Assembly: GCA_017547585.1 (NCBI GenBank)
Contig: JAFYPH010000006.1
Span: 1-38,560, forward strand
Origin: Bacteroidaceae bacterium
GTDB lineage: Bacteria; Bacteroidota; Bacteroidia; Bacteroidales; Bacteroidaceae
Direction of reading: 5' to 3'
DNA length: 38,560 bases
The notes beneath the pieces are model-generated. The model ran no database searches. It saw only the letters and a program-made list of their open reading frames with translations, and was not told the origin of the DNA. A program made the translations under genes and the position numbers. Position 1 is the stretch's first letter, and the number at the start of each line of letters is the position of its first letter. Below are positions 8,631 to 30,758 of this stretch, one piece after another.

Positions 8631-8720
8631 CAAATATACTAACAAACGAGCGAAACAGTATCAAGCCTGCTTGAATATTTCAAAGCGGGAGCAGCGTATA
8701 TTCGCCGACAGGCAAATTTA
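8631..8720 (-). repeat. Promoter-bearing palindromic repeat, single copy upstream of the hydrolase
   Basis: Reading on the minus strand: a -7 box TAAATTTG (8720-8713) is the left arm of palindrome P1 (TAAATTTGCC, loop TGTC, GGCGAATATA, ending at 8697; 9 of 10 positions pair, counting T-G). Then comes the AT-rich hairpin P2, with core TCAAGCAGGCTTGA (about 8670-8657), then CTCGTTTGTT, and a second -7 box TATATTTG (8638-8631) that faces the hydrolase gene. Distance between the two -7 boxes is 82 bp. Same architecture and partly the same sequence as the copies at 26829-27099 and 33171-33269. Confidence 0.75.
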
Positions 8721-25034: not shown

Positions 25035-26531
25035 TTAATCGCGGAATTTGTTTATACAGTCAATGTATGCCTCGACAGACGCCGATACAATGTCGGTGTT
25101 CGCGCCGAATCCATAGTAATTCACGTCGTTGTACTCTACCTGCATGTGTACCTTACCAACGTCGTCGCTACCCTTGCTGATAGCCTGGATGGTGAACTCA
25201 CGCAGTGTCATGTCGCGCTTGATAATCTGCTTCAGAGCATTGATAGCTGCATCCACGGGGCCGTTGCCGGTAGCTGCGCTCTCGAAGAGCTCGCCAGAGA
25301 TGCGCAATCCGAGGCTGGCAACCGAACGGATGTTCAGGCCTGTTGTCACCTGCAGATACTCGAGCTTGATACCCTTGTTTGTGCTGCGGTCGGCACCTGC
25401 AAGCATCAGAATATCGTCGTCGTTGATCTCTTTTTTCTTGTCGGCGAGACGCAGGAACTGCTCGTAGATCTCGTTGAGTTTCTCGGCCTCGACCTCGATG
25501 CCGAGTACAGAGAGACGGTGCTTCAATGCCGCGCGTCCGCTACGTGCGGTCAATACGATTGAATTGTCGTCGATACCCACATCTTTGGGGTTCATAATCT
25601 CGTATGTGCTTACATCTTTCAGCACGCCATCCTGGTGGATACCCGATGAGTGGGCAAAGGCGTTGCGTCCCACGATAGCCTTGTTGGGCTGAACGGGCAT
25701 GTTCATAAGGCTCGAAATCATGCGGCTTGTGGGGTAGATTTTCTGAGTGCTGATGTTTGTCTCAATGTTGAGCATGGGGTGACATTTTGTAATCATCACA
25801 ATCTCCTCGAGTGAGGTGTTACCCGCACGCTCGCCGATACCGTTGATGGTAACCTCTACCTGACGCGCACCATTGATGACACCCGAGAGTGTGTTCGCGG
25901 TTGCCATTCCCAGGTCATTGTGACAGTGTGTAGAGATTATCGCCTTGTCGATGCAGTCTACGTGCTCCATCAGGTACTTGATTTTTGCACCATACTCGTG
26001 GGGCAGACAGTAACCTGTGGTGTCGGGAATGTTCACAACTGTTGCACCGGCCTTGATAACTGCCTCGACCACGCGTGCGAGGTACTCGTTGTCTGTACGG
26101 CCCGCATCCTCGGCGTAGAATTCAACATCCTCGACATATTTTTTTGCATATGAAACGGCTCTCACCGCTGTCTCGATGATTTTCTCGCGTGTAGAGCGGA
26201 ATTTGTACTGGATGTGTGAATCGGATGTTCCCACACCTGTGTGGATACGTTTGCGCTTTGCGAACTTCAATGCCTCGGCTGCACAATCGATATCTTTTTC
26301 AACGGCACGTGTAAGCGCACAGATTGTGGGCCATGTTACCGCTTTTGAAATTTCAATTACAGAATTAAAGTCTCCGGGGCTCGAAATGGGGAAGCCCGCC
26401 TCAATAACATCGACACCAAGCATTTCGAGCTGCTTTGCCACCTGAATCTTCTCCACTGTATTCAACTGACATCCGGGCACCTGCTCGCCATCGCGCAGCG
26501 TGGTATCGAAAATGTAAAGTCTGTTATCCAT
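25035..26531 (-). CDS. leuA: 2-isopropylmalate synthase
   Basis: 498 residues from [20 protein letters not shown]; an open frame extends 41 codons further upstream but runs through the leader and promoter. DRE-TIM metallolyase core: [21 protein letters not shown] (metal-binding His-x-His), [13 protein letters not shown], and [21 protein letters not shown] with [10 protein letters not shown]. The last 130 residues form the leucine-binding regulatory domain ([28 protein letters not shown] with [11 protein letters not shown]), so leucine feedback is expected. It condenses acetyl-CoA with 2-oxoisovalerate. Citramalate synthase is an alternative by fold, but the leuCDB context decides for leuA. 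Confidence 0.95.
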
Positions 26532-26622
26532 AGCTTTATAATTTTTATTTATTATTACTCTTTTTAATTTCTCTTTCAGAGTCCGGCGGCACTCGGCGAA
26601 TGCTACCGCCCCTAAAATTTTA

Positions 26623-26630: not shown

Positions 26631-26828
26631 ATGCTTTCTTTTCAAAATTTGCACTTTCGCGTGCTATTATTTATTAAAAATGCGCGTGCGCAAGGGAGGA
26701 AAGTCGAAAGAGAAGCAAAATTATGGCCGTTTTTGATAATTTTCTTTAAAATTTGAGCAGGAATCGACCATTCGATAATTTTGCTGAAAAGGGACAGGAT
26801 ACTATTTGAATTTTTGCGCGACCTTAAG
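26631..26828. other. Gene-free stretch between the leu promoter and the malQ repeats
   Basis: Together with the repeats this belongs to a 591-bp gap between leuA and malQ. The only structure seen in this part is an 11-bp exact inverted repeat, AGCAAAATTAT (26714-26724) and ATAATTTTGCT (26775-26785), 50 bp apart. No gene is visible. Confidence 0.5.
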
Positions 26829-27099
26829 TAAATTTGCCGTAAACGGCGAATTTAGGATGCGGCTCGCTGCAAAATATTAAAGCAAGCTTTATTTTTTACT
26901 CGCCTTTAAATAAATTTGTCTTTCACTATATTTGCCGTAAACGGCGAATATATACTGCACTCGCTGCAAAATATTAAAGCAAGCTTTATATTTTGCTCGT
27001 TTGTCACTATATTTGCCGCTCAGCGGCCAATATAGGATGCGGCTCGGAATAAAAATCAAGTAAACTTTATTTTTCTTCTCTCGCCTTTCACTATATTTG
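26829..27099 (+). repeat. Tandem array of three promoter-bearing palindromic repeats upstream of malQ
   Basis: Units start at 26829, 26927 and 27008 (98, 81 and 84 bp), and the array closes with a -7 box at 27092-27099. Each unit opens with palindrome P1, whose left arm is a -7 box: TAAATTTGCCGT/ACGGCGAATTTA (26829-26854), TATATTTGCCGT/ACGGCGAATATA (26927-26952), TATATTTGCCGCT/AGCGGCCAATATA (27008-27034). Then CTCG, hairpin P2 (core TAAAGCAAGCTTTA in units 1 and 2; CAAGTAAACTTT in unit 3), CTCG again, and CACTATATTTG leading into the next unit. A further TAAATTTG lies at 26911-26918. Arm bases change together between units (A/T swaps at the outer arm), so the pairing is kept. Confidence 0.85.
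27092..27099 (+). promoter_or_regulatory. Proximal -7 box for malQ
   Basis: TATATTTG followed by C, the last box of the repeat array. It predicts transcription starting near 27106, which leaves only about 17 nt of leader and favours the ATG at 27123 over the one at 27111. Four further TAnnTTTG boxes in the same orientation lie upstream in the array (26829, 26911, 26927, 27008). Confidence 0.6.
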
Positions 27100-27122
27100 C
27101 AATCTATTAGATGATTTTAACA

Positions 27123-29663
27123 ATGAAAAAGATAAAATTTATAGTTACTTTTCACACTGATGCTGACACGACGATTCAGGTGAAATATCGTTTCCGTACA
27201 ACCGGAGGCGAAGAATTCGAGAATCGTTTGCAGCTGGACGAGACTGCGCCCGACACTTGGAGCGGCTTTCTCACATTCAACAACGACACTACCGAACTTA
27301 CATATGGCTACGAGGTTGCACGCAACAACGCGACCGTGCGCGGCGAATGGGGCGACACTCCCCACAAGGTCGACCTCGAGGGCGATGAGTCTTCGTGGCA
27401 GCTTTTCGACAAATGGTTCGACTCGCCCTTCTGCAACTATATGCAGAGTGGATTGTTCAAGAAATTTTACCATTGCAAGAGCAGCGAAGGATACAAACAG
27501 ATTACACTCCCCCGCAGCAATGCCGACCTTCTCTTCTTCGACATTCAGGCCTGCGGACTCGCTGCCGACGAGACACTCGTGCTCACAGGCGAGGCCGAGG
27601 CACTTGGAAGCTGGGAGCCCTCGCGTGCCATACGCATGACAAACACAGCCTTCAATCGTTGGCAGTGCGTCGTGGAGCGAGCGCCGCTGTGCAACAAAGA
27701 ATTGAAATTCAAATTCGTAGCACTCGACACAAAGAGTGGCGAGGCACGCTGGGAGCCGGGCGAAAACCGCTCGCTGTTCGTGAGCGACGAGGAGCGCCCC
27801 ACCATCAGCCGCCACACATTCGAGGGGCTGAACTTCGGAGCACCGCGTCTGCGCGTCGCAGGAACCGTAATTCCGTTATTCTCATTGCGTTCCGAGAGCA
27901 GTTGGGGCATCGGAGACTTCGGCGACCTTAAAAAGATGGCCGAGTGGTTGGCCGCCACCGGGCAGCATGTACTGCAGCTATTGCCCGTGAACGACACTAC
28001 CATCTACGGCGGCGAGGGCGACTCGTACCCCTACAACTGCGTTTCGGTCTTTGCGCTGCACCCGCAATATATTGATATTTCGGCACTTCCCGCAATAAAA
28101 GATGGCAGGACACGCGCAGCATTCTTCCGCCGCGCCAAGCGTCTGAACGAGAGCCGCACATTCGACTACCCTGCCGTGAACGAGCTTAAAGAGAGCTACC
28201 TGAGAAAACTCTACGAAGAGAGCGGCGCGAAACTGCTCGAAAGCCCCGAATACAAGCTCTTCGAGAAGGAGCAGCAAGCATGGTTGAGGCCCTACTGCGC
28301 CTACCGCTTTTTGTCAAAGAAAATTTGTCCCGGACCGGGTAATTGGGGAGCCTACGCATCGTACACCGCCGACACCTGCGACCGCCTGAAAAAAGAGTAC
28401 GACGATGCTGCCCACGAAATGGGCTATCATGCTCTTGTTCAATATTTTCTATACTCGCAGCTAAAAGATGCACACGAGCACTCACTCTCCTTGGGCGTTG
28501 CGCTGAAAGGCGACATTCCCATCGGCGTTGCTCCCGACGGAGTGGACGTGTGGTGCGACAGAAAGCTGTTCAACTGCAACGGCTCGGCAGGAGCGCCGCC
28601 CGACGCATTCTCGGCCGACGGACAGAATTGGGGATTCCCCACATATAATTGGGAGACGATGGCGCTCGACGGCTACGCTTGGTGGAAACAGCGCCTGAAA
28701 TATATGTCAAACTTTTTTGACGCCTACCGCATCGACCACATTCTGGGATTTTTCCGCATTTGGGAGATCCCCTCATACGTAGCGAGCGGCCTTTCGGGAC
28801 ACTTCAGGCCCAGCATGCCCCTAACCATCGAAGAGATTGAAAAGGCTGGATTCTACTTCGACGCAGCGCAGCACTCATGCGCAAAAGCAACGGAGCTGCC
28901 CACCGACAAGCCCGCCGACCTTCTCTTCATCCCCGACGAGACACTGCCCGGCTACTATCACCCGCGCATAATGGCCTCGGAGACAAAATGTTACCGAGCG
29001 CTGGGCGAGCGCAACAAGCAGGCGTTCGACCGCATATACGAAGACTTTTTCTATCACCGCCACACGAATTTCTGGTTCGAGGAGGCGATGAAAAAGCTTG
29101 CTCCCCTGCTCAGTGCAACATCGATGACAGCCTGCGGCGAAGACCTGGGAATGATTCCCGCCTGCGTACCTTGGGCAATGGACAACCTGCAGATACTCTC
29201 ACTAGAAATTCAGCGTATGCCCAAACAGTATGGAGTAAGATTCGCGCGCACCGAGGAGTACCCCTATCTGTCGGTGGCGACACCCTCGACCCACGACATG
29301 AGCACACTGCGCGAATGGTGGACCGAGAGCCCCGAGGAGACACAGCATTTCTACAACGAGGCTATCGGCCGCGAGGGAAAGGCACCCGCCGAAATGGACG
29401 GAGCAACAGCAAAAGCTATCCTCGCAATGCATCTGAAGTCGCCCTCGATGCTGACAATGATAGCATGGCAGGACTGGATGGCCATGGACGAGCGTCTGCG
29501 CCACCCCGATGCTCTCGAAGAGCGAATAAACATCCCCGCCAACAGAGGACACGTATGGAACTACAGAATGCACATGACCATCGAAGAGCTGTGCAAGCAG
29601 AGAGCATTCAACGAGACAGTCTCGCAGATGATACAGGAGTCGGGACGCTCGACCGAAGCATAA
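27123..29663 (+). CDS. malQ: 4-alpha-glucanotransferase, DPE2-like, with N-terminal starch-binding domains
   Basis: 846 residues from MKKIKFIVTFHT; the ATG four codons earlier would be about 5 nt from the predicted transcript start. Two CBM20-type starch-binding domains precede the enzyme (residues about 1-100, and about 130-235, with VLTGEAEALGSWEPSRAI). The GH77 domain starts near residue 250 (GTVIPLFSLRSESSWGIGDF). Catalytic residues: Asp538 (DAYRIDHILGFFRIW), Glu673 (CGEDLGMIP) and Asp725 (STHDMSTLREWW). The layout matches plant and bacterial DPE2, which transfers glucose from maltose to larger glucans. No signal peptide, so cytosolic. Single gene behind the repeat array. Confidence 0.93.
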   Translation: MKKIKFIVTFHTDADTTIQVKYRFRTTGGEEFENRLQLDETAPDTWSGFLTFNNDTTELTYGYEVARNNATVRGEWGDTPHKVDLEGDESSWQLFDKWFDSPFCNYMQSGLFKKFYHCKSSEGYKQITLPRSNADLLFFDIQACGLAADETLVLTGEAEALGSWEPSRAIRMTNTAFNRWQCVVERAPLCNKELKFKFVALDTKSGEARWEPGENRSLFVSDEERPTISRHTFEGLNFGAPRLRVAGTVIPLFSLRSESSWGIGDFGDLKKMAEWLAATGQHVLQLLPVNDTTIYGGEGDSYPYNCVSVFALHPQYIDISALPAIKDGRTRAAFFRRAKRLNESRTFDYPAVNELKESYLRKLYEESGAKLLESPEYKLFEKEQQAWLRPYCAYRFLSKKICPGPGNWGAYASYTADTCDRLKKEYDDAAHEMGYHALVQYFLYSQLKDAHEHSLSLGVALKGDIPIGVAPDGVDVWCDRKLFNCNGSAGAPPDAFSADGQNWGFPTYNWETMALDGYAWWKQRLKYMSNFFDAYRIDHILGFFRIWEIPSYVASGLSGHFRPSMPLTIEEIEKAGFYFDAAQHSCAKATELPTDKPADLLFIPDETLPGYYHPRIMASETKCYRALGERNKQAFDRIYEDFFYHRHTNFWFEEAMKKLAPLLSATSMTACGEDLGMIPACVPWAMDNLQILSLEIQRMPKQYGVRFARTEEYPYLSVATPSTHDMSTLREWWTESPEETQHFYNEAIGREGKAPAEMDGATAKAILAMHLKSPSMLTMIAWQDWMAMDERLRHPDALEERINIPANRGHVWNYRMHMTIEELCKQRAFNETVSQMIQESGRSTEA

Positions 29664-30482: not shown

Positions 30483-30758
30483 GCTTGCACTACTTTGGAT
30501 AAGATAGGCGGCACCTCGGACGGGTTGTTGAGCGACAGCGAAAAAGAAAAAATAAACGAGATTTATTTTTTTCTTCATAAACAAGTTTGCACTACTTTGG
30601 ATAAGATAGGCAGCACCTCGGAAGAAAAAATAAACGAGATTTATTTTTTTCTTCAAAAACAAGTTTGCACTACTTTGGATAAGATAGGCGGCACCTCGGA
30701 AGAAAAAATAAACGAGATTTATTTTTTTCTTCACTCGGTTTGCACTATCTTTGCAAGG
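30483..30758 (+). repeat. Tandem repeat array upstream of tRNA-Leu
   Basis: Units start at 30483 (102 bp, with about 24 extra bases), 30585 (78 bp) and 30663 (75 bp), followed by a partial fourth unit at 30738. Each reads TTTGCACTACTTTGG, ATAAGATAGGCGGC, ACCTCGG, then a hairpin GAAGAAAAAATAAA/TTTATTTTTTTCTTC, then a spacer. In the partial fourth unit the box is intact, TATCTTTG (30746-30753), and serves the tRNA; in the full units one T is missing (CTACTTTG). The downstream AAGATAG of each full unit is the exact complement of CTATCTT, so the same box-palindrome, CTCG, hairpin layout is present as at malQ and cdd. Confidence 0.85.
30746..30753 (+). promoter_or_regulatory. -7 box for tRNA-Leu
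   Basis: TATCTTTG followed by C, 33 bp before the first base of the tRNA. It is the only intact TAnnTTTG box of the tandem array. Confidence 0.6.

What the first reader, a model, noticed from the sequence alone, without database searches (positions are those of the whole stretch)
26829..27099. Tandem promoter-palindrome units upstream of malQ, with compensating base changes
Three head-to-tail units each start with a -7 box that is itself the left arm of a palindrome. The outer arms read TAAATT/AATTTA in unit 1 and TATATT/AATATA in unit 2, and unit 3 has a new centre (GCCGCT/AGCGGC) that still pairs. The seventh position is never a Watson-Crick pair (T-G, T-G, T-C). Arms that change together argue for selection on the folded or dyad structure, not just recent copying. 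All boxes face malQ, giving up to five stacked -7 boxes. Possible roles: tandem promoters, operator dyads overlapping the -7 box, or a small structured RNA. This kind of element is not one I can name.
Basis: partly seen in the sequence, partly recalled or inferred. Interest (0 to 1): 0.85.

Follow-up and report, generated by a model that had tools for sequence, protein, structure and literature searches.

The report
Promoter repeats that spread between genes
Upstream of malQ sit three copies of an 80-100-base promoter unit that, in this genus of gut bacteria and some related families, has spread from gene to gene, each copy joined to the next exactly at the promoter's -7 box, and whose palindrome arms really do change together.

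Summary
In detail: window 26829-27099 has three head-to-tail units, five -7 boxes facing malQ and three palindromes whose left arm is a -7 box. It is a family, found in 25 of 25 sampled genomes of the genus; similar units were read in three other Bacteroidales families. Arrays lie a median 44 bp before a gene they face (147 of 155 classified). Arms co-vary (51 double-changed cells, shuffles 17.8) and position 7 is almost never Watson-Crick (1 of 83). Single units come and go exactly box-to-box between sister species and between copies of one repeat. Non-sister species share few array positions. In arrays with both broken and intact boxes, the gene-proximal box is intact in 12 of 14, so stacked promoters are probably not all needed. 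The excess of G.T over A.C mismatches expected of a sense RNA is absent. Best reading: a spreading promoter repeat whose gene-proximal unit is the working promoter. How it moves is unknown; a Y1 transposase was not found in 23 of 25 genomes.

The parts
26829..27099 (+). array of three promoter units, head to tail, facing malQ
26805..26836 (+). likely resident promoter at the left end of the array: TTTG (26805-26808), 20 bp, box TAAATTTG (26829-26836)
   Evidence: sequence; assignment as the original promoter is inference
26829..26854 (+). palindrome HP1 of unit 1, left arm = -7 box
26873..26896 (+). dyad HP2 of unit 1
   Evidence: does not fold better than shuffles here
26911..26918 (+). -7 box TAAATTTG, right end of unit 1
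26927..26952 (+). palindrome HP1 of unit 2, left arm = -7 box
26970..26993 (+). dyad HP2 of unit 2
27008..27034 (+). palindrome HP1 of unit 3, new centre, left arm = -7 box
27051..27074 (+). dyad HP2 of unit 3 (B type), one pair changed from C-G to T-A
27092..27099 (+). gene-proximal -7 box TATATTTG, the likely working promoter of malQ
   Evidence: role inferred
27123..29663 (+). malQ, 4-alpha-glucanotransferase (a start at 27111 is also possible)
25035..26537 (-). leuA, 2-isopropylmalate synthase, divergent neighbour
8631..8720 (-). another single unit in this window
30490..30753 (+). another array in this window, facing tRNA-Leu; three internal boxes broken, last box 30746-30753 intact

Best explanation
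An interspersed, tandem-stacking promoter repeat. A unit runs from one -7 box to the next: box plus right arm (palindrome HP1), CTCG, dyad HP2 over the -33 region, CTCG, short spacer, box. Shown: the unit occurs throughout the genus, faces genes at promoter distance, is present or absent precisely between boxes, and both dyads co-vary. Inferred: (1) the gene-proximal box drives the gene; (2) transcription starts about 5 bases after the box, for an internal box the centre of HP1; (3) units spread as copies using the 8-bp box as seam (template switching or recombination helped by hairpins, or an unidentified recombinase), which leaves the gene a working promoter; (4) arms stay paired because palindromes are exchanged or corrected as DNA, while position 7 stays unpaired because pairing it would make a backward-facing -7 box or break the forward one.
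For: Family in 25 of 25 genus genomes. Pattern hits far above the reversed-pattern control. 147 of 155 classified arrays face the next gene, median 44 bp. Final box 18 nt before the RNase P RNA model and 34 nt before tRNA-Leu. Exact one-unit differences at L219/L324, L237/L328 and L379/L391; unit-bearing and unit-less copies of one repeat in G013. Non-sister genomes share 14 downstream genes over 15 pairs. Co-variation of HP1 and HP2. Last box intact in 12 of 14 mixed arrays, P 0.003.
Against: No transcription data. Loci were largely fetched by a pattern that includes the box, which biases towards intact boxes. Direction (gain or loss) of the one-unit differences is not known, and no clean filled/empty pair at a single-copy promoter was found: most of the 21 G021/G045 comparisons differ in more complex ways. 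At L378/L388 all three boxes changed A to C while the facing arms did not, and a second palindrome changed on one side only. Background intergenic boxes also face genes (321 of 388), so orientation alone is weak. The count of pairs with any double change does not exceed shuffles (4 against 4.1). 58 of 154 arrays keep two or more intact boxes.
Confidence: 0.68

Rival explanations
1. The co-changing arms are mainly a mutational footprint: template switching at palindromes during replication makes and mends arms, with little selection for the fold. This can be true together with the best explanation.
For: No strand bias among imperfect pairs (10 G.T, 20 A.C). One-step two-arm change CGG/CCG to CGC/GCG between nearly identical loci. 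Two G013 copies without the unit carry the mirror form TTCG in the box. The mechanism is described for RNA hairpins in PMC8794818 (abstract and opening text).
Against: Position 7 is left unpaired in 82 of 83 palindromes, so correction is not free to act everywhere; whole-palindrome exchange between units (L229/L331) explains part of the co-variation without it.
Confidence: 0.35
2. Stacked promoters are selected as such: several units give a gene more or better timed transcription.
For: 58 of 154 arrays keep two or more intact boxes; unit number differs between sister species.
Against: Broken boxes lie upstream: the last is broken in 2 of 14 mixed arrays where 7.3 are expected; in the window's tRNA-Leu array all internal boxes are broken.
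Confidence: 0.15
3. A structured RNA: arrays are read through from upstream and the hairpins act in the transcript.
For: Palindromes fold well as RNA; the T.G at position 7 would be a wobble pair on the sense strand.
Against: 10 G.T against 20 A.C elsewhere; the inferred start lies at the palindrome's centre; nothing but tRNA-Leu matches Rfam in the window.
Confidence: 0.08
4. A single-strand (Y1, IS200/IS605 or REP type) transposon whose arm pairs with its cleavage site.
For: Box, facing arm and hairpin are laid out much as such elements are (recalled); insertion right after a fixed sequence.
Against: PF01797 matched in 2 of 25 genus genomes but in 13 of 16 genomes of other genera.
Confidence: 0.06
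5. Operator dyads for a regulator that overlaps the -7 box.
For: A dyad overlaps the box.
Against: Arm sequence and spacing vary freely, downstream genes look unrelated and mostly differ between species.
Confidence: 0.03

Closest known systems
BrickBuilt MITE of Porphyromonas gingivalis (PMC4596501: abstract and section 9 read)
   Same: Bacteroidales; intergenic; tandem units that expand and contract; carries promoters; proposed there as a possible mobile promoter
   Different: 23-nt units between leader and tail with terminal inverted repeats; promoters in both directions; 4-base target duplications (GAAA, AAAA); here 80-100-base one-way units that end exactly at a -7 box
BOX elements of Streptococcus pneumoniae (PMC3049150: listing and start of abstract; the rest recalled)
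   Same: modular intergenic repeat with a variable number of units and hairpins
   Different: not built around a promoter box, other phylum
Correia elements of Neisseria (passages of the review PMC10969869)
   Same: short spread element placed upstream of genes and able to supply promoters
   Different: terminal-inverted-repeat element; not tandem box-to-box units (recalled)
REP, BIME and REPIN palindromes with RAYT transposases (passages of PMC3733652)
   Same: short palindromic repeats, arrays, spread through genomes
   Different: tagged GTAG or CGTC; GTAG type tied to Y1 transposases; here no such tag in the unit and Y1 not found in 23 of 25 genomes
Template-switch hairpin evolution (PMC8794818: abstract and opening text)
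   Same: one-step compensatory changes in palindrome arms
   Different: described for RNA genes; here the palindrome is in promoter DNA

Membership tests
Bacteroidota sigma-A promoter | -7 box TAnnTTTG | tested here: met
   187 of 214 units defined without the box carry it within 14 bases after CTCGYYTKT (44 of 6420 random 14-mers), in loci partly fetched by a box pattern; consensus from passages of PMC9723704
Bacteroidota sigma-A promoter | -33 TTTG about 19-20 bp upstream of the box | tested here: inconclusive
   present by eye at the left box of the malQ array (26805-26808) and in units ending HP2 in CTTTG; others have TTTA or TTCA; no count made
Bacteroidota sigma-A promoter | mapped transcription start | not testable with these tools
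   no transcript data
MITE | terminal inverted repeats at the unit's ends | tested here: inconclusive
   only looked for by eye in the unit borders; no clear pair seen
MITE | target site duplication shown by filled and empty sites | tested here: inconclusive
   units are bordered by two copies of the box, as a duplication would give, but gain or loss is not resolved
REP with RAYT | Y1 (PF01797) transposase in the genome | tested here: not met
   matched in 2 of 25 genus genomes, not in the window's own (drafts)
REP with RAYT | GTAG or CGTC tag at the foot of the palindrome | tested here: not met
   by eye in units; the recurring tetranucleotide is CTCG
BrickBuilt | 23-nt tandem units with leader and tail | tested here: not met
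   unit spacing here 81-98 bp in the window and mostly 83-86 in other arrays
Known RNA family (Rfam 15) | match above gathering score in the array | tested here: not met
   only tRNA-Leu in the window

The most novel reading that the evidence does not exclude
A promoter-homing mini-element: the unit's arm base-pairs with the -7 box of the target, on the strand that RNA polymerase opens, and this pairing guides insertion right after the box, so the element lands only in promoters, duplicates the box and leaves the gene expressed. It would be a new way of choosing targets, carried out by a host enzyme or an unknown recombinase, in several Bacteroidales families.
Probability: 0.13. Interest if true: 0.92.

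Novelty: new variant of a known kind. Interest (0 to 1): 0.7.

Why it matters
If right, promoters of many genes, housekeeping genes among them, in a whole group of gut bacteria are copies of one repeat and move between genes as species diverge. It gives a natural system for asking how expression survives promoter replacement, and a clean test of whether co-varying palindrome arms in DNA reflect selection or template switching. It also warns that base-pair co-variation alone does not prove an RNA.

Tried and rejected
Small RNA or leader: set low on mismatch bias, inferred start and Rfam. Operator: set low on arm variability and gene mix. Y1 transposase: searched and largely absent. Pairing of bases just outside the box with bases after the arm: no excess. 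Phages and plasmids as carriers: 0 exact hits for the B-type box pattern in viral contigs; partial hits to two unverified faecal phage scaffolds for the window array and to one Phocaeicola record for a unit from another family; no plasmid hit for the window array; one scaffold and the Phocaeicola record were read.

Literature: the listings showed no paper that describes this repeat; these listings show only the top 6 to 15 of up to 1,172 papers. In one search, 22 papers hold one of three short strings from the unit; 15 were listed, all for the first string, with unrelated titles, and 7 were not seen. The paper holds 'bacteroid' once, in a passage not shown. The library lacks most subscription journals.

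Limits of counts: the first gene calling put 23 of 154 arrays inside open frames and was replaced by a hexamer model. In one search only 122 of 240 units fit the strict expression. In some searches, 70 of 90 non-terminal boxes carry the AA anchor and give 45 distinct rows, two of them out of register. HP2 rows were chosen by best hairpin and so lean towards pairing; one search repeats the test with an anchor (206 of 240 units, 55 distinct rows). In one search the shuffle maximum equals the observed value. In one search six of the 14 mixed arrays are from G007 and may not be independent. One search used the loci held (for G041, 20 arrays from 30 of 46 hits). One search's alignments force unlike stretches together and its output was cut; one search replaces it, and its pair L232/L328 is a mismatch of loci. 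Genes named in the report as recA, ssb, radA, thyA, dUTPase, tatC, surE, secA and recF are named by recall from printed sequence, not by a family search.

Full report
1. The observation. The array is as described. Three palindromes each start with a -7 box: 26829-26854, 26927-26952, 27008-27034. Five boxes (starts 26829, 26911, 26927, 27008, 27092) face malQ (4-alpha-glucanotransferase); the divergent neighbour is leuA. A second dyad recurs at 26873-26896, 26970-26993 and 27051-27074 and overlaps the -33 region; one of its pairs is C-G in units 1 and 2 and T-A in unit 3. The three box palindromes fold far better than shuffles (z -4.5, -4.6, -3.7); of the second dyads, unit 1's does not (z 0.54) and the others do moderately (z -2.4, -2.9).

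2. It is a family. A search with the array hit 25 of 25 genomes of the genus (G000-G024), 10 to 24 matches each, and 1 of 16 genomes of other genera, that one at E 0.003 (at most 17 candidates per genome were scored). The pattern CTCGYYTKTN{0,6}TANNTTTG gives 24 hits in the window's genome against 1 for the reversed pattern, 55 against 0 in G001 and 44 against 3 in G007, 54 and 48 against 0 and 0 in G021 and G013, and 46 against 1 in G041. In 295 Bacteroidales genomes, most are near control level; genera in six other families have a genome with 8 or more hits (f22, f29, f68, f88, f108, f109; f108 only 8 against 2, and G277 of f29 22 against 5). It is patchy within some genera (17, 1 and 0 in g70). 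I read 20 loci from f109, f88 and f22 only: the same plan with another HP2. There the box's variable base pairs with the arm in 10 of 11 anchored units (shuffle mean 5.3, maximum 10). Upstream sequences printed tie several genomes of the genus to named MAGs: Bacteroidales bacterium SIG128 and SIG131 and Bacteroidaceae bacteria from roe deer, water buffalo and yak. A human faecal scaffold and a Phocaeicola massiliensis record hold similar units.

3. Place. With genes called by a hexamer model, 174 arrays were found: 13 inside a predicted gene, 6 with no downstream gene in the locus, 147 facing the next gene and 8 not. The median distance from last box to start codon is 44 bp. Five of the 8 exceptions belong to one repeat family of G013. 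As background, other intergenic TANNTTTG boxes in these loci face the next gene in 321 of 388. By recall from the printed sequence, downstream genes include recA, ssb, radA, thyA, dUTPase, tatC, surE, secA and recF. A final box lies 18 nt before the RNase P RNA model start (L008) and another 34 nt before tRNA-Leu in this window.

4. The palindromes. Of 90 non-terminal boxes, 83 pair at 6 or more of 8 positions with a downstream arm; shuffles give about 11. The offset is 10 in 64 of the 83. Position 7 is T.G in 73, T.T in 8, T.C in 1 and T-A in 1. For terminal boxes, mostly with no unit behind them, 57 of 152 reach 6 pairs and position 7 is T-A in 38 of these. On 45 distinct rows the 12-pair helix has 51 double-changed cells (shuffles 17.8, 0 of 500 as high), 89.8% of cells paired (79.8%), and slid registers reach at most 9 double-changed cells; the number of pairs with any double change is no higher than in shuffles (4 against 4.1). 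The box's fourth base matches the arm in 31 of 45 first units (14 expected, shuffle maximum 22) and 53 of 69 internal ones (27, maximum 38), and left and right box agree at that base in 41 of 45. Inner arms come as AGG/CCT, AGA/TCT, CCG/CGG, CGG/CCG, CAG/CTG, AAG/CTT and others around a TAAA loop. The second dyad, anchored on AAG....CTT, pairs at its three tested columns in 45, 47 and 41 of 55 rows (shuffle means 27, 18, 21; maxima 42, 32, 33). With the box at -12 to -5, as mapped in a flavobacterium (PMC9723704, passages), the start would fall on the centre of the box palindrome; that is an inference from another class. A paired position 7 would put a full TANNTTTG on the other strand facing backwards; this is my reading of why it stays unpaired.

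5. Probably not an RNA. Outside position 7 the imperfect cells of the 45 rows are 10 G.T or T.G, 20 A.C or C.A and 29 others. A sense RNA should favour G.T. This fits structure or processing as DNA.

6. How units come and go. G021 and G045 are close (20 flanks 92-99% identical). At L219/L324 and L237/L328 one species has exactly one more unit, between two copies of the box, and unlike the neighbouring unit in its HP2. In G020/G004, L379/L391 differ by exactly one unit, here with the same HP2 and another HP1. At L229/L331 the arms read CCAT/ATGG in one species and CGGT/ACCG in the other. At L378/L388 all three boxes read TATATTTG in one species and TATCTTTG in the other while the facing arms stayed; one palindrome changed CGG/CCG to CGC/GCG on both sides, and the next changed on one side only. 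In G013, of 34 matches to one repeat, 30 loci were read: 10 carry the unit (one of them two), 3 a single box without unit (2 of these with the box changed to TTCG), 1 the box segment flipped, 4 neither, and 12 were too different upstream to class. L409 and L400 form a pair with and without the unit, seam at the box. The other G021/G045 comparisons (21 in all) mostly differ in more complex ways; one G021 array (L160) has no unit in G045, one pairing (L232) is a mismatch of loci, and further module types occur. Gain and loss are not told apart.

7. Turnover. Downstream genes of arrays in six genomes (16, 20, 29, 27, 31 and 31 arrays) give 14 shared genes over 15 genome pairs, some only distant homologues, and none between G000 and its nearest relative G041. 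Of 30 malQ loci, only the window's own has the pattern within 600 bp upstream; two of the others hold only 155 and 259 bp there.

8. Which box works. In 14 arrays with both intact and broken boxes the last is broken in 2 (7.3 expected, P 0.003; six of the 14 are from G007). In the window's tRNA-Leu array all three internal boxes are broken alike and the last is intact. So the gene-proximal promoter seems to be kept and the others free to decay, though 58 of 154 arrays have two or more intact boxes.

9. Mechanism. Most likely the unit is a spreading promoter module with the -7 box as seam. Candidate routes are template switching or recombination at the box helped by hairpins (PMC8794818 describes one-step mending of hairpin arms; abstract and opening text), or an unknown recombinase. 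A Y1 transposase is unlikely (2 of 25 genomes, against 13 of 16 in other genera). Whether the arm guides insertion to a matching box is the bold reading.

10. Status. Closest published kin are BrickBuilt, BOX, Correia and REP elements; I know of none with the -7 box as unit border, and the searches listed under Tried and rejected showed none. I file it as a new variant of interspersed, palindromic, promoter-carrying repeats.

Noticed in passing
window 30490-30753: Array of three more degenerate units before tRNA-Leu (the 78-bp tandem repeat); all internal boxes broken to TACTTTG, last box TATCTTTG intact.
   Followed up: partly
window 8631-8720 (- strand): Single unit upstream of a short secreted-looking protein; left box TAAATTTG, right box TATATTTG, arm fits the right box.
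   Followed up: partly
L399-L428 (G013): A repeat with ends like TATTnnTGTCCGRTAAAA (by eye) occurs in 34 matches and carries the promoter unit in some copies, so the unit can hitchhike on another mobile element.
   Followed up: partly
L225, L226, L228 and their G045 partners: Further module types inside arrays, for example an AATAAAAGTAAACTTTTATT hairpin between CTCG tags and a GGCTTCGCCGAAG segment.
   Followed up: no
L378 versus L388 (G020, G004): All three boxes of one array changed at the same base between near-identical species, including the left one in unique flank; a very short conversion tract or box turnover is needed.
   Followed up: no
genus g1: MalQ is only 45-51% identical between the window's species and most others of the same genus, so the genus is very deep.
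   Followed up: no
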